Shown here: in pieces, positions 8,401 through 43,622 of the stretch
How positions within the stretch are numbered: the stretch's first letter is position 1
Layout: each line of letters starts with the position of its first letter
Source of the DNA: Chloroflexus aurantiacus J-10-fl
GTDB taxonomy: Bacteria > Chloroflexota > Chloroflexia > Chloroflexales > Chloroflexaceae
Assembly (NCBI RefSeq): GCF_000018865.1
Contig: NC_010175.1
Location: 2,728,001-2,792,000 of the forward strand
DNA: 64,000 nucleotides
Direction: 5' to 3'
Translations under genes and position numbers: made by a program
The notes under the pieces: model-generated
What the model saw: the letters and a program-made list of their open reading frames with translations, nothing else
What the model was told of the DNA's origin: nothing
Databases searched by the model: none

Positions 8401-9348
8401 ATGTATCGCGATCCCTCAATTCGCTCTTCCGAGATAACTCCAGAGTCGCTCTACCTGAGCCGACGGGCCTTGTTAGGTGGCATCGGCGCACTGGGTGCCG
8501 GCCTCGTGCTGAGCGCCTGTGGTCTGAATGTTCCCTCAGATCGTCCGGGGCAGGCAGTAGCACCCGACGATACCACCCCCCGCGACGAGCTTGGCGATCC
8601 GGCCAACAGCTTCGAGCAGATCACCAACTACAACAACTTCTACGAATTCACGACCGACAAAGAAGCGGTTGCGCACCGGGCCGCCGGTTTCGTGACCCAC
8701 CCCTGGACAGTAGAAGTGACAGGGATGGTACACAAGCCACGGATCTTTGCTATCGAAGATATCCTCTCGATGTTCGACCAGGAAGAGCGCATTTATCGTC
8801 TACGCTGCGTCGAAGGGTGGTCAATGGTCATCCCCTGGCAGGGTTTCCCGCTCCACAAACTGCTGACCATCGTCGAACCAACTGCACAGGCCCAGTTCGT
8901 TCGCTTCGAGACCCTCTACGACCCTGATCAGATGCCAGGGCAGCGTGACCGCTACTTCCCATGGCCCTACGTTGAAGGACTACGCCTCGATGAGGCAATG
9001 CACGACTTAACGATCCTGAGCACCGGCCTCTACGGTCGTACCCTCTTGCCGCAAAATGGCGCCCCACTGCGCCTGGTAGTTCCATGGAAATACGGCTTCA
9101 AAAGCATCAAATCCATCGTCAAAATTGAACTAACCGATACCATGCCGGTATCGTTGTGGATGGCAGTCGCACCGCATGAATACGGCTTCTACGCCAACGT
9201 CAATCCCGACGTTCCCCATCCACGCTGGTCGCAGGCCACCGAACGGCGCATCGGCGAGCTTGGCCGGCGCAAAACGTTGCTCTTCAACGGCTATGCCGAA
9301 CAGGTCGCTGCCCTGTACGCCGGGATGGATCTGGCCCGTAATTACTAG
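8401..9348 (+). CDS. msrP: protein-methionine-sulfoxide reductase catalytic subunit MsrP (molybdopterin)
   Basis: A 315-residue SUOX-fold molybdoenzyme. The start at 8401 follows AAAGGA. A twin-arginine signal (SRRALLGG, residues 20-27) leads into LVLSAC, so the protein may also be lipidated at Cys40 after export. The molybdenum ligand is Cys136 in [10 protein letters not shown], followed by PWQGFPL; later [20 protein letters not shown] is typical of MsrP/YedY. The enzyme reduces oxidised methionine in envelope proteins using electrons from MsrQ. The msrQ gene lies downstream but is separated by about 730 bp of repeats, an interruption of the usual adjacent pair. Confidence 0.93.
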
Positions 9349-10078
9349 AACTTATTTCATAAAAGCTGTGCTGTCGTGCTCCCAGCCTATCGCACATGCG
9401 CATGAACACCTGCTAATCGCCAACAACAGCATATCCTGCTTCCAGTCTGCCGATGTGACAGGAGGAGAGCTACCGCCCATCGCCAGTGCCATCACGCGCC
9501 GAATAGGTTGCCTTGCCCGCTCGTCATGCCCGTGTCGCGAAGTTTGGAATGCGGCAGCCATACTGCCGCGCCAGCCGCGCTCACGATCCGGTGCGTGGCA
9601 CGCTGTTGACCCGGCTGGTCACGGCTCTTGCTCCCGGCAACCGGTATGGCAGCGAAGAGGCTACCGCCCATCGCCAGTGCCATCACGCGCCGAATAGGTT
9701 GCCTTGCCCGCTCGTCATGCCCGTGTCGCGAAGTTTGGAATGCGGCAGCCATACTGCCGCGCCAGCCGCGCTCACGATCCGGTGCGTGGCACGCTGTTGA
9801 CCCGGCTGGTCACGGGGATGCTGTTATTCCGTACATCTATCTACAGATCAATCACGTGGCAGATTGAATCCTTCCCGCTCCGCAGGCATGGGTTGCTTTG
9901 GAGGGCGGCGGCCTGGTTTCCGCCATCGCCGTGATCAATACCAGAGGTGTATTGTACCGCTCACCCTGCTGATGATAGCTACAACATACGATAATCATCT
10001 GGCCTCTCAAGAATTGGTGAGCTATTGTCGCCATCACCATGATCTGGCAGTTGTCAGCCAGCTCCTCTTCATCATCAT
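9348..10078. repeat. repeat block between msrP and msrQ, with a 156-bp tandem duplication
   Basis: No gene is supported here. Bases 9469-9624 recur almost unchanged at 9660-9815 (offset 191). Each copy contains the widespread hairpin core with GCGGCAG...CTGCCGC. The left edge (from 9348, TATTTCATAAAAGCTGTGCT) recurs at 21318-21346, so the block is a copy of a dispersed family. From about 9840 to 10078 I see no gene and no clear repeat. Confidence 0.8.
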
Positions 10079-11690: not shown

Positions 11691-12734
11691 CTATGCATTA
11701 CCCATAACGCGAATACTGCATTGCCCGCGTGCCGGAGCGGGTCGGGGGAGTGATGAAGAACGTGCTCCCCAGCCGGGAGCTGGGAGCGCGCGCCGGAGGC
11801 GCGCATGGTGCCGGTACCAGTGCTGGAGGGAGGAGCCAGGCGCAAGCTCCCGCCCCTGGCGGCATGCACAAACGGCCAGGACAGATGATCGAACCCAACG
11901 TCTACCTTATCAGGCCGCCCTCGATCAAACGTCTGCCCTCCCCTCTCCCACCCCCAGCGGCTATGCCTTACCCACAACTGGTGTCAACCACGTGCGTATC
12001 AGCAGGTATGATCGCCATGGATGCTGTTGTGGGCGACTGGCCCGATGGCAGTGTGCCGCTCCAGCCGTGCTATCACGTGCTGGATGGATTGCCGTACCCG
12101 CTCGTCAGGCGCGTGTCGCGCAGTTTGGCGTGCGGCAGCCATGCTGCCGCGCCAGCCGCGCTCACGATCCGGCGCGGATTGCAGCGGACACCCGTGCCGG
12201 TACGTTCCCCTGATGATGGGGATGGCTGAGCACAGGCCGGCAGCCTGCCCCTCCGCGTGCTGGTGCCGGTAGTGTGGAGGGGCGGGTTCGGTAGGGGCGG
12301 GTTGAGAACCCGCCCCTACGGACGGTGCCTGTGCCGTTCACCTGACCTTCCACGGGATGCGGTGGACGGGAATGTCGTGCATCGCGGTTGTTCAGAGGTA
12401 ATCGCAGCCGCTACGCTCCCCGCTCCCGCGCAGCGCTATGCCTTACCCATACCCAGGTTGTCAACCGCTTCGCCCATCAGTCGAACCTGTCTCATTGTAC
12501 GCGATCCTGGGCACTATCGCGTCACCCTGCTGTCGCGTGGGTCGTACGTCACGAACGGAAAGCGGATGATAGCAGCGGAGGTAGCCGTTGGATCAGACCA
12601 TGGGGAAGACGTCCAGCCTGCGCACTAGCGGCCATGGCCAGCCCCTGCCGGCGGTGGCGAGGATGCCTCCACGCGGGCCACGGGGAGCGCGTGCAGACCG
12701 GCCTAACGCAGCGTGACATGTGGGTAATGCATAG
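11691..12734 (+). mobile_element. long or composite copy of the CTATGCATTACCC terminal-repeat element (copy A)
   Basis: The left end at 11691 reads CTATGCATTACCCATAAC and the right end at 12719-12734 reads TGTGGGTAATGCATAG, the same terminus inverted. The first 270 bp match 27511-27780, and from 11960 an internal terminus-like CTATGCCTTACCCACAAC starts the module shared with copies at 12850, 27781 and 43149. The right half is interrupted: after about 12180 unrelated or rearranged sequence follows, including a 13-bp palindrome at 12291-12319 and a third terminus-like stretch near 12437. The shared core resumes near 12620. No transposase is encoded; the open frames inside are not conserved as proteins. 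Confidence 0.75.
12291..12319. repeat. palindromic repeat GTAGGGGCGGGTT, perfect copy
   Basis: Arms 12291-12303 and 12307-12319 are perfect complements of 13 bp with a 3-base loop. Related copies lie at about 33411-33438 (degenerate) and 61404-61432 (one mismatch). It behaves as a small dispersed palindrome of intergenic DNA. Confidence 0.75.
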
Positions 12735-12818
12735 GGGAGCGCGAGCCTCCAGCTCGCTCACCACCCGGTCTGCGTAGATGACTCCCGCCCCCAGCGGGGG
12801 CGGGCTGGGGTGGAGGTG
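12735..12818. repeat. 84-bp repeat with GCGAGCC/GGCTCGC hairpin, repeated at 13516-13600
   Basis: Nearly the whole stretch recurs at about 13516-13600: a hairpin GCGAGCCTCCAGCTCGC, then CACCACCCGGTCTGCG, then CCCGCCCCCAGCGGGGGCGGG. The hairpin alone also occurs at 13450-13466 and 13656-13672. It fills the gap between two mobile-repeat copies. Confidence 0.75.
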
Positions 12819-12849
12819 AACCCTACCCCACACCTCTCACTGTAGGCGC

Positions 12850-13325
12850 CTATGCATTACCCACAACTGGTGTCAACCACGTGTGTATCAGCGGGTATCG
12901 CCATGGGTGCTGTTGTGGGCGACTGGTCCGGTGACAGGGCGCAGCTCCAGCCGTGGTATCACGTGCTGAATGGGTTGCCTTACACGCGCATCATGGGCGT
13001 GTCGCGCAGTTTGGAGTGCGGCAGCCATGCTGCCGCGCCAGCCGCGCTCACGATCCGGCGCGTGGCATACCGTTACCCATCCTGGTCACGAGGGTGCTAA
13101 ATGTGCTCGGGCCGATCATCGAGTCGGTCAGGCATGCGTGCGATCCCTGTGCGTAAACGGTTACGTTGCGAGAGATTCGTGCCTGTACACCAACGGCCAC
13201 GGCCAGCACCTGACGGCGGTGGCGAGGATGCTTGCACGCAGGCTGGAAGCCTGCACCACGGGGAGCCGCCACGGGGAGTGCGTGCAGCCCGGCCTAACGC
13301 AGCGTGACATGTGTGTAATGCATAG
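12850..13325 (+). mobile_element. short copy of the CTATGCATTACCC terminal-repeat element (copy B)
   Basis: A 476-bp element whose left end is CTATGCATTACCCACA. The right end is TGTGTGTAATGCATAG, one base different from the perfect inverse. Internal landmarks shared with the other copies are the GCGGCAGC-CAT-GCTGCCGC hairpin near 13019 and the GCAGGC-TGGAA-GCCTGC hairpin at 13238-13254. The flanks show no clear target duplication. There is no conserved reading frame. Confidence 0.85.
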
Positions 13326-14989: not shown

Positions 14990-15457
14990 ATGGCAACACC
15001 ACCACAAGTTGGCGAGATGGCTCCCGACTTTACCCTTCCGAACGAAGCCGGCGAACCGGTCTCACTCAGCCAGTTTCGCGGCAAGCGGGTTATTCTCTAC
15101 TTCTACCCCAAAGACGATACTCCCGGTTGTACATCACAAGCCTGCGGTTTCCGCGACTCATACCCGGTCATTGAAGAAAAGAACGCCGTCGTGATCGGGA
15201 TCAGTCCTGATGGCACCAAATCCCACGCCAAATTCAAAACGAAACACAACTTGCCTTTCATCCTGTTAGCCGATGAGCAGCACAGTGTTGCCGAGGCGTA
15301 TGGGGTGTGGGGCGAGAAGTCGATGATGGGCAAGAAATATATGGGCATCATTCGCTCCCACTTCGTCATCGATGAAGAGGGTCGCATTGTGCAGGCTGAA
15401 ATTAAAGTGAGTCCCGCCGATAGTGTCAAACGCGCTCTTGCAGCGCTGGGCTTATAG
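14990..15457 (+). CDS. bcp: thioredoxin-dependent thiol peroxidase, Bcp/PrxQ type
   Basis: A 155-residue peroxiredoxin. YPKDDTPGCTSQAC carries the peroxidatic Cys47 and the resolving Cys52 five residues later, the alpha-type PrxQ arrangement. MATPPQVGEMAPDFTLPNEAG and the C-terminal IRSHFVIDEEGRI complete the family pattern. It reduces hydrogen peroxide and organic hydroperoxides in the cytoplasm. The last 63 bp of the gene belong to a 213-bp unit that is duplicated directly downstream. Confidence 0.95.
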   Translation: MATPPQVGEMAPDFTLPNEAGEPVSLSQFRGKRVILYFYPKDDTPGCTSQACGFRDSYPVIEEKNAVVIGISPDGTKSHAKFKTKHNLPFILLADEQHSVAEAYGVWGEKSMMGKKYMGIIRSHFVIDEEGRIVQAEIKVSPADSVKRALAALGL

Positions 15458-15820
15458 TCGCCGCGTGCCATGGCGAGAGCGATTTACGCAGCTGTATAAT
15501 CCATTCTCTTATCAGGGAGCGTCACATTGAGTGCGGAAGCGTTGTTTCCGTACTCAATACACGCGACACGTGATACCTGGGATAAAGCAGAGAAACCGTT
15601 GTGTAGCGCTGAAATTAAAGTGAGTCCCGCCGATAGTGTCAAACGCGCTCTTGCAGCGCTGGGCTTATAGTCGCCGCGTGCCATGGCGAGAGCGATTTAC
15701 GCCGCTGTATGACCCACTCCCTGATTAGGGAGCGTCACATTGAGTGCGGAAGCGTTGTTTCCGCACTCAATACACGCGACACGTGATACCTGGGATAAAG
15801 CAGAGAAACCGTTGTGTAGC
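15395..15820 (+). repeat. 213-bp tandem duplication including the 3' end of bcp
   Basis: Unit 1 (15395-15607) and unit 2 (15608-15820) are nearly identical. The unit starts inside bcp, covers its last 20 codons and stop and runs about 150 bp downstream, including a hairpin of the form GAGTGCGGAA...TTCCGCACTC that may act as the terminator. Unit 2 therefore contains a truncated bcp tail without a start. The unit is 71 codons long, but the first stop precedes the second copy, so the protein is not extended. Confidence 0.9.
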
Positions 15821-17246: not shown

Positions 17247-18137
17247 TCAATCTGGCGCGATGCCTATCAGGACGCCGTTGCATAACTGGAGTGCCAGTCG
17301 GCCATCTTGTTCAACGACAGGCATTGCTAAATGTTTATGAGGCTGGTATTCAACCGCATCGGTAATCTGTACACGTTGACCATCAGCCACAATGAAGGTA
17401 AACGGTATGCCCCATTCAGCAATTGCCCGCACAAAGGCGTAGGCCCGTTGTACCGACCATTCCGCAGTCAACACAAAGTCCTGTGTCCGGGGTGAAGGAA
17501 AGTAACTGCCACCCGCTGCCTGGGGTGACGGTCGCCACTCTGCACTGGTGATCTGGCTGAGTGCGGTCGGTAACATTGTGGCGGCGCATTGTCCGGCGAG
17601 TGTTTCCAGCGTATGTAGACGCTCGCCGGGCGGTAGATCAAACCATTCCTGGCAGACAATCGGGCCGTGATCAAAGTCCGCATCCATCAGGTGCAGGGTC
17701 ATTGCCGTGCGCGTCCAGCCCAATCGCAACGCCCAGAAGAGTGGTTCCGGGCCACGGAGTTCTGGTAATGGCGATGGGTGCAGGTTGAGCCAGCCGTAGC
17801 GTGGTATCTCAAGCAATGCTGCCGGGATGCGCCAGGGCCAGCAGGCAACAATCGCGAGGTCTACCTTCTGCCGACGCAACTGCTCACCGATCTCGGCAAT
17901 AGCATCTCGCCGAACGGCATAGCGCGGAATCCCGGCTGCATCGGCAATGGTAGCCGCTGTTGCCGGTGCGAGTAGCGTAGGGTTGCGTGCAGGTGCAGCC
18001 GCCGGTAACTGGGTCAACGCCGGCATACCCGCCGGTGCCGGATGCACCAGCCCGATCACCTCAACCGGCAACCTCAGCAGACCCTGCAAGACTGGTAGTG
18101 CCATCGGGCCTGGAATGGCAAAGAGAACGATGCGCAT
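17247..18137 (-). CDS. formyltransferase-fold protein related to methionyl-tRNA formyltransferase
   Basis: A 296-residue protein with ATG at 18137. GWLNLHPSPLPELRGPEPLFWAL and LHLMDADFDHGPI carry the catalytic His-Pro-Ser and Asp of the 10-formyltetrahydrofolate-dependent transferase core (about residues 95-190). A diverged C-terminal region follows, with SPRTQDFVLTAEWSVQRAYAFVRAI. The length is near that of Fmt (about 310), but the N-terminal nucleotide-fold start (MRIVLFAIPGPMALPVLQGL) and the tail differ from housekeeping Fmt. A different acceptor, such as an amino sugar or small metabolite, is possible. The promoter region is shared with the divergent yggX. Confidence 0.75.
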   Translation of the reverse strand: MRIVLFAIPGPMALPVLQGLLRLPVEVIGLVHPAPAGMPALTQLPAAAPARNPTLLAPATAATIADAAGIPRYAVRRDAIAEIGEQLRRQKVDLAIVACWPWRIPAALLEIPRYGWLNLHPSPLPELRGPEPLFWALRLGWTRTAMTLHLMDADFDHGPIVCQEWFDLPPGERLHTLETLAGQCAATMLPTALSQITSAEWRPSPQAAGGSYFPSPRTQDFVLTAEWSVQRAYAFVRAIAEWGIPFTFIVADGQRVQITDAVEYQPHKHLAMPVVEQDGRLALQLCNGVLIGIAPD

Positions 18138-18203: not shown

Positions 18204-18506
18204 ATGGCGCGAATGGTGCATTGTGTCAAATTCGGTCGCGAACTTCCCGGTCTGGATCGGCCACCCTTCCCTGGCCCGCTTGGGCAGCGCATCTACGAAC
18301 AGGTGTCGGCCCAGGCCTGGCGACTGTGGCCACAACAGGCAACGCTGATTATCAATCATTATGGCCTGAGTTTAGGCGATCCGAATGCGCAGCAAATCCT
18401 GATGAAAGCCATGGAAGAGTTCTTTTTCGGCGAAAATGCTCCTATGCCTGAAGGGTGGACACCACCAACCGCTGCTCCGGCGAAGGGAGGGCCGCGTCGC
18501 AAATAG
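18204..18506 (+). CDS. yggX: YggX-type Fe(II)-trafficking / oxidative protection protein
   Basis: A 100-residue protein; the start at 18204 follows GAAAGAAAGAG. MVHCVKFGRELPGLDRPPFPG, LGQRIYEQVSAQAWRLW and TLIINHYGLSL reproduce the YggX pattern (a Cys near the N-terminus, PxPGxLGxRI, then WxxWxxxQTxLINE). The last 20 residues are Pro/Ala-rich. The family is linked to iron handling and protection of iron-sulfur clusters. The only neighbour on the same strand is far off; a TATAAT at 18158-18163 is a likely -10. A radical SAM enzyme gene lies nearby, but no functional link is shown. Confidence 0.88.
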   Translation: MARMVHCVKFGRELPGLDRPPFPGPLGQRIYEQVSAQAWRLWPQQATLIINHYGLSLGDPNAQQILMKAMEEFFFGENAPMPEGWTPPTAAPAKGGPRRK

Positions 18507-18551: not shown

Positions 18552-19820
18552 CTACAGGCTAACGGTAGACGGCACCAGCTCGATTGCCGGAACGATGGTG
18601 AAGCGCAGGCAGGCATGTGCGGCGCGCAGTGCTGACTCGACGGTCGCCGGATCAGAACCACGAGCAAAGATGAAGCCGAGATAGCTGTCACCCTCTGGTA
18701 GGGGTGTCAGCGGGTAATTGAGCGGTGCCGTAATTTCGACTGCCTCAATACCGGGAATTGCACATGCCTCAGCCACTCCATCAACGGCGCGTAGGATACC
18801 GGCTTGTGGGATCGGTATCATCATCACCCCACCCGCCTGTCCCTCGCGACTGAGGGTGTCCACAGGTAGACCGGCAGCCTGGCGCAAAATCAATTCCTCT
18901 AAAGAGGCATCAGTGCCGAAACGTAATGTTCGCGAGCATAAACCGCCGATGCTGCGGTTAGCTAACTCGATCATCCACGGCCCGCACTCGTTGATCCGCA
19001 GCTCGGCATGCAACGGCCCACGCTCTAACCCCACAGCCCTGGCCGCTGCTGCGGTTACTGCACAAATTGCCGCTTGCGTTGCTTCCGGTAGGCGTGATGG
19101 TGTGACGTAGATCGTCTCTTCAAAAAACGGCCCATCGAGCGGGTCAGGCTTGTCGAAAAGCGCCAGTACCTGTACCTGGCCGTGATCGATCAATCCCTCC
19201 AGCGCAACCTCAAATCCCGGCACAAAGTCTTCAATCAAGAACTCATGCACCCCTGCCCCTTCAATCCGGTCGAGCAAGGCGGCGAGGCGGCGGATTGCCG
19301 CGAGGCACTGGGCCGGGTTATCGGCCCGGATAACGCCGCGACTGCCGTTGAGGCGCAGGGGCTTGACAACACAGGGAAACGTGACCGACTGCACCAGCGT
19401 CGGTAGATCGTCGGCGGTGGTGCAGAGGCGAAACGCCGGTGACGGTACTCCGGCACGGGCGAAGAGCTGACGCATCAGATGTTTGTCACGAGCAGCAGCG
19501 GCGGCTTCTGGCCGATTGAAGGGCAGCCCAATATCGGCACAGGCCAGCGCCGCCAGTTCAACCCCACTGTCGTCAACCGGTAGGATAGCGCTCAACGGTT
19601 GGTTAGCGTGCAAATTGCGGATGGCCTGCAATGCTGCTGCCTGATCACTAAAATCAATCAATAAGCGCCCCGGCAATGGCCGACTCAAGGCGGGTGGGGT
19701 GTCTTCAGCAACCGTTATCTGGACACCGATCCGCCCGGCTGCATCCAGAAAGGCTGGCAGCCGGTACGATGATGGTGTGGTGAGCAACAACAGATGTGGA
19801 CGCATACCGATCTCGGTCAT
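18552..19820 (-). CDS. ATP-grasp ligase next to a CCAEP-tail radical SAM gene
   Basis: About 422 residues; possible starts are GTG 19841, ATG 19820 and ATG 19805, with no decisive ribosome site. The ATP-grasp core has FPCVVKPLRLNGSRGVIRA (nucleotide-binding lysine and loop), FLIEDFVPGFEVALEGLI, LHAELRINECGPWMIELANRSIGGL (metal ligands) and a C-terminal LAL-type domain to residue 420. Such enzymes activate a carboxylate with ATP and join it to an amine or thiol. The radical SAM gene ends 24 bp upstream, so the two are co-transcribed. The substrate is unknown; a carboxylate-amine ligase in a small natural-product or cofactor pathway is the most natural reading. Confidence 0.8.
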   Translation of the reverse strand: MTEIGMRPHLLLLTTPSSYRLPAFLDAAGRIGVQITVAEDTPPALSRPLPGRLLIDFSDQAAALQAIRNLHANQPLSAILPVDDSGVELAALACADIGLPFNRPEAAAAARDKHLMRQLFARAGVPSPAFRLCTTADDLPTLVQSVTFPCVVKPLRLNGSRGVIRADNPAQCLAAIRRLAALLDRIEGAGVHEFLIEDFVPGFEVALEGLIDHGQVQVLALFDKPDPLDGPFFEETIYVTPSRLPEATQAAICAVTAAAARAVGLERGPLHAELRINECGPWMIELANRSIGGLCSRTLRFGTDASLEELILRQAAGLPVDTLSREGQAGGVMMIPIPQAGILRAVDGVAEACAIPGIEAVEITAPLNYPLTPLPEGDSYLGFIFARGSDPATVESALRAAHACLRFTIVPAIELVPSTVSL

Positions 19821-19844
19821 AGCTGTCGCATTCCCGTACACAGG

Positions 19845-21230
19845 CTACAAATATTTTGCCATCAACTGGCTGTCTGTCGGTTCAGCACAACAGTACCACG
19901 GTTCGCTCAGCCTTGGCACCGGTGCAGCATCTGGCACGGTCGCCGGGCGCGGGCCAGGGCCAATAATCCGATCACACAGGTCGAGCAGTCGCAGATAGAA
20001 GCTGCTGCGCGACTCGCCACACTGCTCGCTGCACTGGGCAAGCGCCATCACCTCGCGTTGTAACGTGTCCATCGCCGGGTCGGGATGCCGCCAGGGGTAC
20101 ACCAGCGCCTCCGGATCGAACGGCTCAACCAGCGCCTGTACATCGGGCAGCTCAAGCAACCGCGATCCTTCAGGTATGAGCAGCCGTAAGCCGTACTGAA
20201 CCGGAGCAACACTCTCGATCAGGCCCAATTCAGCGATACCAAGCAAAAAGTCGCGATACACCTGGCGTGTTGTCCACGGTGTAAAGGCCACGAATGTTGC
20301 ATTCAGGGCAATATCGTGTTCCCGTAGAAGCTGAACCGCACGCACCACATCGGCCCGGCTGTGACGTTTGGCAAAGCGGGTCAGGATGGTGTCATCGAGC
20401 GCTTCAACGGCGCTCACGACCATGATACAGCCGGTTGCGCGTAGTTCCGGCAACAGATGAGCATACCGAATGATGTGCTCGATCTTGATCGTGACATCGT
20501 AGGTCAGGTCGGGAAACTCGGCGTGCATAGCGCGCACAATCGGTAAGACGTGGCCGGGGCCATTCAGAAAATCCGGGTCGCCAAAGGTGATATGGCGCGC
20601 TCCGGCAGCGACCTGTGCCCGGATGTCGGCCAGCACGGTTGAGCGCGGTACCACGCGAAAATGCCCGTTGTAAACCGGGACAACCGGGCAGTGACGGCAG
20701 AGGTGTTTGCAGCCACGAGTTGTTTCGGTATACCCGGCCAGATGGGTCTTGCCACCGCTGATCAACGTTGCATAGCGGTCGAGAGGCGGTAAGCCGTTCC
20801 GGTCAGGCGGGATGAGATCGAGCCGATTGAGGAGAATGGTGTCGGCAACTGACGGGCGTTTGCCGGCGGCTATGTGCTGCCAGATCGCCGTGAGCTGTTC
20901 CTCAACTTCGCCACCCAGGCAACAATCGGCCCCAGCCTGATGCAGGATTGCGGCATTGAGCGGAGCGTACAGTCCGTAGCAGACAATATATGCGTTTGGT
21001 GCTGCTGCCCGCAGGTGTGGCAACATATCCAACGCCAGCCGGGTGGCCGTGTGCATCGGTACCGAGATTCCGATTAGTGCGGCATTGGCGGCCATTTCTG
21101 CCGTCAACGGTGTGACACTGGTGTCAACACAAACCACATCTGCCCCTGCCCGGCGTAGCCACGCGGCGGGTGATGCCAGGCTGAGCGGTTGGTGGCCAAG
21201 TTCATAGGTTGAGATAAGTAAGACGTTCAT
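19845..21230 (-). CDS. B12-binding-type radical SAM protein with C-terminal CCAEP tail
   Basis: A 461-residue protein. The start at 21230 is preferred over an in-frame TTG at 21248, with GGAG upstream. Residues about 1-125 form a cobalamin-binding-like Rossmann domain (STYELGHQPLSLASPAAWL). Then TETTRGCKHLCRHCP gives the [4Fe-4S] Cys triad at 174, 178 and 181. The C-terminus reads EPWYCCAEP, with Cys447-Cys448 both encoded by TGT. I recall a described protein family named for a CUAEP/CCAEP tail, in which the second position may be selenocysteine; this would be a Cys form. The reaction is unknown. It heads a two-gene operon with the ATP-grasp gene. Confidence 0.85.
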   Translation of the reverse strand: MNVLLISTYELGHQPLSLASPAAWLRRAGADVVCVDTSVTPLTAEMAANAALIGISVPMHTATRLALDMLPHLRAAAPNAYIVCYGLYAPLNAAILHQAGADCCLGGEVEEQLTAIWQHIAAGKRPSVADTILLNRLDLIPPDRNGLPPLDRYATLISGGKTHLAGYTETTRGCKHLCRHCPVVPVYNGHFRVVPRSTVLADIRAQVAAGARHITFGDPDFLNGPGHVLPIVRAMHAEFPDLTYDVTIKIEHIIRYAHLLPELRATGCIMVVSAVEALDDTILTRFAKRHSRADVVRAVQLLREHDIALNATFVAFTPWTTRQVYRDFLLGIAELGLIESVAPVQYGLRLLIPEGSRLLELPDVQALVEPFDPEALVYPWRHPDPAMDTLQREVMALAQCSEQCGESRSSFYLRLLDLCDRIIGPGPRPATVPDAAPVPRLSEPWYCCAEPTDSQLMAKYL

Positions 21231-22212
21231 GATGATATTGTACTCCAAACTGAGATGTTGACGAACAGCGGGCCATCAGGATGTTACATCAAATCTGGTG
21301 TAATATCAGACACACGAGAACGTATTTCATAAAAGCTGTGCTGTCGTACTTCCAGACGGTCGCACAGGCGCATGAACGCTTGCCCATCGTCAACGCCGGT
21401 ATATCCTGCTCCCAGGCTGCCGGTATTGCAGCAGGGAGGGCTAATGAGCTTCTTCGGCGCCATCACGCGCTGGATTGGTTGCCTTGCCCGCTCATCATGT
21501 GCGTGTCGCGACGTTTGGAAATCATCGCTCCAGGCAACCCATTCGCCGTAATACGCTTATCAGGCACGTGTCGCGACGTTTGGAGTGCGGCAGCCATGCT
21601 GCCGCGTCAGCCGTGCTCACGATCCGAAGCGTGTCACGCCGTTGACCATGCTGGTCACGAGGATGCTGTATGTGCTCGCCACAATCATTGAGTCGATCTG
21701 TAATGAATCTAGTCAATGTTTTTTGCAATAGATGCTATCCAAATCATCACTCTTTCCGTCCCATAGCAGTGGCACCGGCGATTGACGAGTGCGGGCCACC
21801 TGCTCTCTCCACGGGGAGCGGTATCGACGCCGTGGCGCGAATACCGAATCGTATCCGCGACAATGGTTCACAGTATCCATCAAGATATGATGAACCCAGG
21901 TTGCCACCTGTGTTGTGATCAGGCCACAGAGGCTGACTTCCAGGATGAACAGCACGACGTTGTGCGCAACATTGTGCGGCGTACCTGGATTGAACGATGT
22001 GGGACGCATCCGGTTCCCATCGACGCGCTCTGTCACGACTCATGGTAGCAATCCGGCTTATACCCATCCTCTGTGGTGGCAAAGGTAGCAACCTGGGTTA
22101 TGATTATGAGTAGGAGAGGGCCGGGGTTGAGGGCTTCCAGATGCTCGTGCACCTGCAACGTTCCCTCAGCAGTTCGTCGGCAGCACGTCAGCACGGAAAA
22201 CGACACATCGGA
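21231..22212. repeat. gene-free stretch with dispersed repeats
   Basis: From 21287 there is CATCAAATCTGGT, a motif also near 33314, 34893 and 48414. From 21318 to about 21690 the sequence follows the repeat seen at 9348, including a hairpin core GCGGCAGC-CAT-GCTGCCGC near 21590 and a tail GGATGCTGTATGTGCTCG. From 21700 to 22212 I see no repeat and no convincing gene; two overlapping minus-strand frames of about 110 codons lack ribosome sites and recognisable motifs. Confidence 0.65.
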
Positions 22213-27510: not shown

Positions 27511-28245
27511 CTATGCATTACCCATAACTCGCATACTGCATTGCCCGCGTGCCGGAGCGGGTCGGGAGAGTGATGACATGACGGGCGTGCTCCCCAGCCG
27601 GGAGCTGGGAGCGCGCGCCTCCGGCGCGCATGGTGCCGGCACCAGTGCTGAAGGAGGAGCCAGGCGCAAGCTCCCGCCCCTGGCGGCATTCACGGACGGC
27701 CAGGACAGATGATCGAACACAACGTCTACCCTATCAGGAAGCCCTGGATCACACGTCTGCCCTCCCATCTCCCACCCCCGCTATGCATTCCCCATACCTG
27801 GTGTCAACCACATGCGTATCAGCGGGTATGATCGCTATGGGTGCTGTTGTGGGCGATTGGCCCGGTGATGGTGCGCAGCTCCAGCCGTGCTATCACGTGC
27901 CGGATGGGTTGCCTTACGCACGCATCATGTGCGTGTCGCGCGGTATGGAGTGCGGCAGCCATGCTGCCGCAGCAGCCGTGCTCACGATCCGGCGCGTGCC
28001 CCACCGTTCCCCATCCTGGTCACGGCGGTACTGGATGTGCTCGTGACAATCATCGAGTCAGTCAGGCATACATGCGATACCTGGGCGTAGCGGTGTTGTT
28101 GCACTTGGTTCGTGCCTGCGCACCAGCGGCCACGGCCAGCACCTGACAGCGGTGGCGATGATGCCAGCACGCGGGCTGGAAGCCCGCGCCACGGAGAGTG
28201 CTTGCAGCCTGGCCTAACGCAGCGTGACATGTGGGTAATGCATAG
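27511..28245 (+). mobile_element. long copy of the CTATGCATTACCC terminal-repeat element (copy C/D)
   Basis: The outer left end at 27511 reads CTATGCATTACCCATAAC; the right end (28230-28245) is TGTGGGTAATGCATAG. The first 270 bp match copy A and contain the hairpin GCGCGCCTCCGGCGCGC near 27613. An internal terminus-like CTATGCATTCCCCATA at 27781 begins the short module (465 bp) shared with the copies at 12850 and 43149. CACGTATATC directly before the element (27501-27510) recurs at 28248-28257, 2 bp after it, probably a target duplication blurred by a small insertion. That would make the 735-bp long form a transposing unit. No transposase frame is present. Confidence 0.82.
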
Positions 28246-43148: not shown

Positions 43149-43622
43149 CTATGCATTACCCACAACTGGAGTCAACCACGTGCGTATCAGCGGGGATCAT
43201 CGCCATAGGTGCTGTTGTGGGCAACTGGCTCGGTGTGCGCAGCTCTAGCCGTGCTATCACGTGCTGGATGGGTTGCCTTACATGCACATCATGTGCGTGT
43301 CGCAGGGTTTGGAGTGCGGCAGCCATGCTGCCGCGCCAGCCGTGCTCACGATCCGGCGCGTGGTCCGCCGTTCCCCATCCTCGTCACGGCAAAGCCGGAT
43401 GTGATCGTTTCGATCATCGAGTCGGTCAGGCATACATGCGATACCTGCGCGTAGAAGTTTAGTTGTACCAGATTCGTGCATGCGCACCAGCGATCACTGC
43501 CAGCACCTGACGGCGGTGGCGAGGATGCATCCACGCAGGCTGGAAGCCTGCGCCATGGGGAGCCGCCACTGGGAGCGCTTGCAGCCCGGCCTAACGCAGC
43601 GTGACATGTGGGTAATGCATAG
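43149..43622 (+). mobile_element. intact short copy of the CTATGCATTACCC terminal-repeat element with 9-bp target duplication (copy E)
   Basis: A 474-bp element. The first 16 bases (CTATGCATTACCCACA) and the last 16 (TGTGGGTAATGCATAG) are perfect inverted repeats. The element is flanked by GCCAGAGGT at 43140-43148 and again at 43623-43631, a perfect 9-bp direct repeat, the usual mark of transposition. Inside are the GCGGCAGC-CAT-GCTGCCGC hairpin near 43316 and GCAGGC-TGGAA-GCCTGC at 43535-43551. No protein is encoded, so it must be moved by a transposase supplied elsewhere. It sits in the gap between the LacI operator region and argS. Confidence 0.93.

What the first reader, a model, noticed from the sequence alone, without database searches (positions are those of the whole stretch)
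18552..21230. CCAEP-tail radical SAM protein with an ATP-grasp partner
The radical SAM protein has a cobalamin-binding-like N-domain, a CxxxCxxC cluster and a C-terminal EPWYCCAEP. The ATP-grasp gene follows 24 bp later in the same direction. I recall that a family named for this tail includes selenocysteine forms (CUAEP); the two Cys here are TGT TGT. Radical modification followed by ATP-dependent ligation suggests an uncharacterised small-molecule or peptide pathway. No precursor peptide is evident in the neighbouring 1 kb.
Basis: partly seen in the sequence, partly recalled or inferred. Interest (0 to 1): 0.65.

Follow-up and report, generated by a model that had tools for sequence, protein, structure and literature searches.

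The report
Radical-SAM and ATP-grasp biosynthetic module
Two neighbouring genes, a radical enzyme with an unusual Cys-Cys (often Cys-selenocysteine) tail and a peptide-bond-forming ligase, travel together across many bacterial groups, usually beside an iron or iron-sulfur helper gene, and probably make a small unknown amino-acid-derived compound.

Summary
A radical SAM protein (19845-21230, minus) ends EPWYCCAEP, and an L-amino-acid-ligase-type ATP-grasp gene follows 24 bp later. The protein is a clear member of NCBIfam NF040546 (676 bits, cut-off 500), a family without assigned function. Its nearest characterised relative is ArsL, the arsinothricin enzyme: 57 columns are invariant across ten sequences of the two groups, and ArsL's tail RCC-LKC aligns with C-[C/U]-AEP.

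The pair is real. In 400 Chloroflexota genomes, 91 of the 92 with the radical enzyme also carry the ligase. The second tail residue is usually TGA followed by a conserved hairpin, so it is selenocysteine; Sec and Cys have interchanged repeatedly.

Of 75 strong YggX hits in the phylum, 69 lie within 3 kb of these genes. Other phyla often have an Nfu-type Fe-S carrier instead; none of 216 loci had both.

Best reading: a biosynthetic module, probably an ArsL-like radical step plus amino-acid ligation, for a small metabolite linked to iron or Fe-S upkeep. Chemistry and product are inferred.

The parts
19845..21230 (-). CUAEP/CCAEP-tail radical SAM protein (Cys form), 461 aa
   Evidence: NF040546 676.2 bits, cut-off 500; PF04055 45.1 bits; AlphaFold model mean pLDDT 95.6
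20688..20711 (-). CxxxCxxC motif CKHLCRHC for the [4Fe-4S] cluster
   Evidence: sequence; the three Cys invariant in 63 members
19878..19904 (-). tail EPWYCCAEP; codon of the Sec/Cys position is 19887-19889 (TGT here)
   Evidence: E443, W445 and C447 to P451 invariant in 63 members
18552..19820 (-). L-amino-acid-ligase-type ATP-grasp protein, 422 aa (alternative start GTG 19841)
   Evidence: PF13535 104.2 bits, LAL_C2 57.8 bits; PDB 3vot E 2e-37
18204..18506 (+). YggX-type Fe(2+)-trafficking / oxidative-damage-protection protein, 100 aa
   Evidence: PF04362 123 bits; NF003817 137.8 bits, cut-off 74; 69 of 75 strong phylum hits lie within 3 kb of module genes
17247..18137 (-). formyltransferase, 296 aa, Fmt-like but below the Fmt equivalog cut-off
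   Evidence: PF00551 65.5 bits; TIGR00460 100 bits, cut-off 201.5; conserved N118, H120, D156

Best explanation
The pair is the core of a conserved biosynthetic module for a small, non-ribosomal, amino-acid-derived metabolite. Shown here: the radical SAM protein belongs to a Sec/Cys-tail family that is the sister group of ArsL; it almost never occurs in Chloroflexota without the ligase; both travel with an iron or Fe-S helper (YggX or Nfu) and, in many Chloroflexota, with a formyltransferase. Inferred: like ArsL, the enzyme cleaves SAM to an aminocarboxypropyl-type radical and adds it to a substrate held by the C-terminal Cys-Sec or Cys-Cys arm; the ATP-grasp enzyme then joins the new amino acid to another through an acyl phosphate, as L-amino acid ligases do; the formyltransferase caps the amino group. 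Inferred from neighbours: the product serves iron or Fe-S cluster upkeep in cells that use oxygen.
For: Co-occurrence 91 of 92 against 39 of 308 (Fisher p about 3e-57). The genes are linked in three arrangements in Chloroflexota and across phyla: 8 of 12 non-Chloroflexota-titled loci with at least 2.5 kb on both sides have the ligase nearby. YggX: 69 of 75 strong hits within 3 kb of module genes, 0 of 41 weak paralogues. Among 216 radical-SAM or ligase loci, 80 have YggX, 46 Nfu, 0 both. Ten of ten fetched ligase loci from genomes without an over-cut-off radical SAM gene keep YggX plus formyltransferase (3) or Nfu (7). ArsL kinship: 268.7 bits, 57 invariant columns in 10 sequences. ArsL makes hydroxyarsinothricin and is proposed to use an aminocarboxypropyl radical (PMC8552651, passages). 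Ligase relatives BL00235, BacD and DdaF. Cytochrome-oxidase-family gene in 40 of 40 genomes with the radical SAM gene, 32 of 40 without. LMW thiols act in Fe-S assembly, and multicopy nfu or sufA suppresses a bacillithiol-minus strain (PMC8593673, passages).
Against: No product, substrate or activity is known, and the radical type is borrowed from a relative of about 30% identity. In ArsL itself it is proposed from products in cells, not from in vitro work, in the passages read. 39 of 130 ligase genomes lack an over-cut-off radical SAM hit (34 after counting six weaker ones), so the ligase also works without it or draws on another source. 90 of 216 loci show neither YggX nor Nfu, many of them cut short by contig or tile ends. 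The formyltransferase is almost confined to Chloroflexota. YggX and Nfu may merely serve the radical enzyme's own cluster. Genomes are related, so counts are not independent events.
Confidence: 0.45

Rival explanations
1. It is an arsenic pathway: the enzyme makes an ArsL-type arsenical amino acid such as hydroxyarsinothricin, the ligase builds it into a peptide, and N-formylation protects the producer as ArsN1 acetylation does in ars clusters.
For: Sister family of ArsL with the tandem CC of the tail aligned. Four of the five ArsL loci opened (L114-L117, not L113) carry an ATP-grasp gene near arsenic-annotated or ArsR-type genes. Arsenite methyltransferase gene beside two CUAEP/CCAEP loci, L219 and L144; ArsB-like permease in 10 loci.
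Against: ArsN1, ArsQ, ArsC, ArsH and the CobW and CMD genes of ArsL clusters: 0 of 221 loci each; ArsR 1; ArsM-like 2 to 6 by query, mostly weak. The six ArsB-like loci listed all belong to one family of the phylum, f24. ArsL's third tail Cys is replaced by Pro. The ars-cluster ATP-grasp is only 23% identical to this one.
Confidence: 0.2
2. YggX and Nfu are only helpers that repair or protect the oxygen-sensitive cluster of the radical enzyme in aerobes; the product has nothing to do with iron.
For: Radical SAM enzymes need a [4Fe-4S] cluster; all 40 tested genomes with the gene have a cytochrome-oxidase-family gene.
Against: Ten of ten fetched ligase loci from genomes without an over-cut-off radical SAM gene keep YggX or Nfu beside the ligase.
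Confidence: 0.25
3. A ribosomal peptide (RiPP) is modified by the radical enzyme and the ATP-grasp enzyme.
For: Radical SAM plus ATP-grasp is a known RiPP pairing (recalled).
Against: The ATP-grasp is of the free-amino-acid ligase type; 4572 short frames near module genes gave only groups confined to close relatives, the largest in 8 loci.
Confidence: 0.04
4. The ATP-grasp enzyme adds residues to a protein, RimK-like, for example YggX, Nfu or the radical enzyme's tail.
For: YggX or Nfu stays beside the ligase even without the radical SAM gene.
Against: The closest solved relatives act on free amino acids; the RimK profile scores below its cut-off.
Confidence: 0.06

Closest known systems
ArsL, arsinothricin biosynthesis radical SAM protein (NF040542)
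   Same: Same two-domain build; 57 columns invariant across four ArsL and six CUAEP/CCAEP sequences including the window's; tandem Cys in a short C-terminal tail; often near an ATP-grasp gene
   Different: Score 268.7 against cut-off 450; tail CCAEP, not RCCLKC; no ars genes in the window module; longer linker before the tail
L-amino acid ligases (BL00235, BacD, DdaF)
   Same: ATP-grasp_4 plus LAL_C2 domains; 3vot E 2e-37
   Different: Own conserved block DKPDPLxGPxFEETxYxTPSR across 93 members; below the cut-off of every NCBIfam equivalog listed
AprD4, OxsB, MgmA (solved radical SAM proteins with an N-terminal B12-type fold)
   Same: Fold over residues 1-433: Z 27.6 (rmsd 3.7, 403 aligned), 25.7 (3.7, 417) and 24.9 (3.5, 353)
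   Different: 16-19% identity; a Cys-Sec or Cys-Cys tail is not known to me from those families (recalled)
YggX / glutathione and Nfu / bacillithiol connections in Fe-S maintenance
   Same: The same two helper proteins are the module's neighbours; a review ties LMW thiols to Fe-S assembly, reports nfu suppression of a bacillithiol-minus strain, and cites work on yggX and gshA mutants (PMC8593673, passages)
   Different: No thiol or other product has been shown for this module

Membership tests
NF040546 CUAEP/CCAEP-tail radical SAM (seleno)protein | score over the curated cut-off | tested here: met
   676.2 against 500 bits
NF040546 CUAEP/CCAEP-tail radical SAM (seleno)protein | C-terminal C-[U/C]-AEP tail | tested here: met
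   EPWYCCAEP in the window; pattern in 80 of 80 fetched relatives L032-L111
NF040546 CUAEP/CCAEP-tail radical SAM (seleno)protein | selenocysteine at the second tail position in some members | tested here: met
   TGA in 89 of 143 full-length members; 6-bp hairpin 86% paired in 106 TGA forms against 41% in 83 Cys forms, only in one register; SelB in 74 of 80 genomes. The window protein itself is a Cys form
ArsL (NF040542) | score over the curated cut-off | tested here: not met
   268.7 against 450 bits
ArsL (NF040542) | RCCLKC tail | tested here: not met
   tail is CCAEP
ArsL (NF040542) | arsenic gene context | tested here: not met
   ArsN1, ArsQ, ArsC, ArsH 0 of 221 loci; ArsM-like in at most 6
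ArsL (NF040542) | aminocarboxypropyl transfer to As(III) | not testable with these tools
   needs enzyme assay
L-amino acid ligase type ATP-grasp | ATP-grasp_4 and LAL_C2 domains over Pfam cut-offs | tested here: met
   104.2 against 27 and 57.8 against 29.4 bits
L-amino acid ligase type ATP-grasp | dipeptide formation from free amino acids | not testable with these tools
   needs enzyme assay
B12-dependent radical SAM enzyme | B12-binding domain over the Pfam cut-off | tested here: not met
   26.9 against 32.1 bits
B12-dependent radical SAM enzyme | bound cobalamin | not testable with these tools
   fold matches cobalamin users such as OxsB and TsrM as well as AprD4
RiPP cluster | conserved precursor peptide gene nearby | tested here: not met
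   no short frame shared beyond close relatives among 4572

The most novel reading that the evidence does not exclude
A new low-molecular-weight metal- or redox-handling peptide, a functional stand-in for glutathione or bacillithiol in Fe-S and iron upkeep, is made in more than ten bacterial phyla by an ArsL-related radical enzyme whose Cys-Sec arm presents the substrate, followed by ATP-grasp ligation. Where the radical SAM gene is missing, the ligase keeps YggX or Nfu beside it.
Probability: 0.22. Interest if true: 0.88.

Novelty: new variant of a known kind. Interest (0 to 1): 0.62.

Why it matters
A named but functionless radical SAM family, widespread in soil, marine and hot-spring bacteria, gains testable partners: a dedicated ligase, a formyltransferase and a YggX or Nfu helper. 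It would extend the rare ArsL-type chemistry beyond arsenic, show a selenocysteine arm used in radical catalysis, with at least 10 supported Sec/Cys switches as natural controls, and may reveal an unknown metabolite used for iron-sulfur upkeep. The window's Cys form could be made in ordinary E. coli without selenocysteine engineering, which makes the question practical.

Tried and rejected
Arsenic as the first guess: looked for ars genes in 221 loci and found too few. RiPP precursor: short-frame clustering found none. Neighbour Pfam and NCBIfam tallies outside the 80-locus Chloroflexota set on 120 frames chosen from 189 in 41 loci showed only the 25 commonest families and no third enzyme common to all phyla; methyltransferases, DUF169, aconitase and YggX appear in a few. 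SelB as a test of Sec: present in nearly all these genomes, so weakly informative; of the six below cut-off, three are Cys forms (G230, G265, G391) and three are TGA forms (G238, G212, G217) with partial hits. Papers: no hit for CUAEP or CCAEP, none on ArsL with ATP-grasp beyond the 2021 cluster paper, none of use on Sec radical SAM enzymes. Distances between tail and cluster in the AlphaFold model could not be measured, because model coordinates were not in the Python box. The fold searches listed no ArsL structure, which excludes nothing.

Rows dropped: identical or short tails before the first hairpin test (92 to 86 Sec, 71 to 68 Cys); truncated members before the 143-protein alignment and tree, which also left out L199-L236; neighbours far from the radical SAM gene or above 900 aa, and most ligase frames, before the Pfam tally (and by hand); the five ArsL loci from the 221 and 216 counts.

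Full report
The observation. The radical SAM protein reads 461 aa from ATG 21230, has CKHLCRHC, and ends EPWYCCAEPTDSQLMAKYL with TGT TGT for the two Cys. The ATP-grasp gene starts at ATG 19820, 24 bases after the stop; a GTG at 19841 is an alternative start. The genome, one 5.26-Mb contig, has a single copy.

What the proteins are. The radical SAM protein scores 676.2 bits against NF040546, the CUAEP/CCAEP-tail family (cut-off 500), and 268.7 bits against ArsL (cut-off 450). Its B12-binding domain is below the Pfam cut-off. The AlphaFold model is confident (mean pLDDT 95.6) and resembles AprD4 (Z 27.6, rmsd 3.7, 403 aligned), OxsB (25.7, 3.7, 417) and the methyl-coenzyme M reductase glutamine methylase MgmA (24.9, 3.5, 353). 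The ATP-grasp protein has the ATP-grasp_4 and L-amino-acid-ligase C-terminal domains and matches ligase BL00235 at E 2e-37.

Just beyond the ATP-grasp gene lie a YggX-type iron-trafficking gene (18204-18506, plus) and a formyltransferase gene (17247-18137, minus). The formyltransferase resembles Fmt but falls below its equivalog cut-off (100 against 201.5 bits), and keeps N118, H120 and D156, the residues I recall as the formyltransferase triad.

Conservation of the pair. Of 400 Chloroflexota genomes, 92 pass the radical SAM cut-off and 130 have a close relative of the ATP-grasp protein at E 1e-40 or better. Ninety-one have both, 1 only the radical SAM gene, 39 only the ligase, 269 neither. 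Counting six weaker radical SAM hits, the numbers are 96, 2, 34 and 268. Genomes are related, so the p-value (about 3e-57) overstates independence, but the arrangements differ: same strand downstream, convergent downstream, same strand upstream, or far apart.

Distribution. By record title these include Chloroflexota, Actinomycetota, Acidobacteriota, Nitrospirota, Nitrospinota, Rokubacteria, Planctomycetota, Proteobacteria, Myxococcales, SAR324, Gemmatimonadota, Poribacteria and Eisenbacteria. MAG titles may be wrong for single contigs. Of 12 loci not titled Chloroflexota with at least 2.5 kb on each side of the radical SAM gene, 8 have the ligase nearby.

Selenocysteine. Of 143 full-length members, 89 have TGA at the second tail position. 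Downstream of TGA a 6-bp hairpin is 86% paired in 106 TGA forms and 41% in 83 Cys forms; shifting the register by one to four lowers the TGA forms to 25-61%, and pairs change on both sides. In the earlier folding test the mean z was -1.25 for 86 Sec forms and -0.13 for 68 Cys forms. SelB is over its cut-off in 74 of 80 genomes, including the window's own Cys-form genome. On a FastTree tree, Sec and Cys need at least 21 changes, at least 10 forced by strong branches; the window's Cys clade sits beside Sec forms of its own family.

The iron link. PF04362 occurs in 116 of 400 Chloroflexota genomes. Of 75 strong hits, 69 lie within 3 kb of the radical SAM, ligase or formyltransferase gene; the other six come from f3 genomes without the system; none of 41 weak hits is near. 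Elsewhere an Nfu-type Fe-S carrier stands in that place. Of 216 loci with the radical SAM or ligase gene (five ArsL loci left out), 80 have YggX, 46 Nfu, none both, 90 neither; many of the 90 are cut by contig or tile ends. In 108 ligase loci the counts are 47, 36, 0 and 25. Of 20 ligase loci fetched, ten came from genomes without a radical SAM gene over cut-off: three have YggX and formyltransferase, seven Nfu. Five others, chosen because a formyltransferase was near, have both partners; in the last five the ligase stands alone, and YggX (4) or Nfu (1) is beside the radical SAM gene of that genome. So the helper stays with one or other half. All 40 radical-SAM genomes tested have a cytochrome-oxidase-family gene, against 32 of 40 without.

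Relation to ArsL. In a ten-sequence alignment 57 columns are invariant, including E10, G12, Q14, P15, the cluster Cys, H213, D218, D220, H252, E276, K288, R349, W380 and the tandem Cys 447-448. ArsL ends RCCLKC, which aligns CC with C-[C/U] and its last Cys with Pro 451. ArsL alone makes hydroxyarsinothricin in E. coli, and its authors propose transfer of the aminocarboxypropyl group of SAM to arsenite (PMC8552651, passages). Four of five ArsL plasmid loci opened (L114-L117, not L113) also carry an ATP-grasp gene. That ligase is only 23% identical to this one but also matches BL00235. Ars genes are nearly absent from the CUAEP loci; arsenite methyltransferase genes beside L219 and L144 pass the PRK11873 cut-off and may be chance.

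Mechanism. I propose that the tail arm presents a substrate to a SAM-derived radical, most simply the aminocarboxypropyl radical by kinship with ArsL; the ligase then makes a peptide bond; in Chloroflexota the product or precursor is formylated. Why a Cys-Sec pair: it could bind a soft element or thiol, or carry electrons as the tail of thioredoxin reductase does (recalled). The Fe-S role rests on neighbours and on the known ties between low-molecular-weight thiols, Nfu and YggX (PMC8593673, passages). Every step after gene association is inference.

Verdict. A real, conserved and uncharacterised module. The radical SAM family already has a name; the module as described here was not found in the paper library searched, which lacks most subscription papers.

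Noticed in passing
L118:9881-13086 (IMG/VR contig IMGVR_UViG_3300011435_000045): A phage-like contig with terminase and tyrosine integrase carries, beside the integrase, a stretch coding AHLSESWFCCAEP but no radical SAM gene; 88.6% identical over 35 nt to the gene tail of a Chloroflexota relative (L052). It may be an attachment site made from the 3' end of a CCAEP gene, restoring the tail on integration. No integrated copy was seen.
   Followed up: partly
L114-L117 (ArsL plasmid loci): ArsL-type genes in arsenic clusters stand near an ATP-grasp gene, a GTP-binding (CobW-type where tested) gene and often a carboxymuconolactone decarboxylase family gene, beyond the three genes arsQML.
   Followed up: partly
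L102, L108, L153, L183, L192, L217 and others: A DUF169 (COG2043) gene lies near the radical SAM or ligase gene in 20 of 226 loci, never with YggX.
   Followed up: no
   Followed up: no
window 15395-15820: A 213-nt tandem duplication (96% identical) that includes the 3' end of the peroxiredoxin gene 14990-15457.
   Followed up: no
window 9344-9815, 11951-13236, 21314-21660, 27771-28170, 43234-43534: Dispersed repeats of about 90-300 nt in several copies; two of them lie just upstream of the radical SAM gene.
   Followed up: no
L144:3-911 and L219:1415-2224: Arsenite methyltransferase genes (373.6 and 308.2 bits against PRK11873, cut-off 263) close to CUAEP/CCAEP loci, one in a Betaproteobacteria record and one in a Chloroflexi record.
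   Followed up: partly
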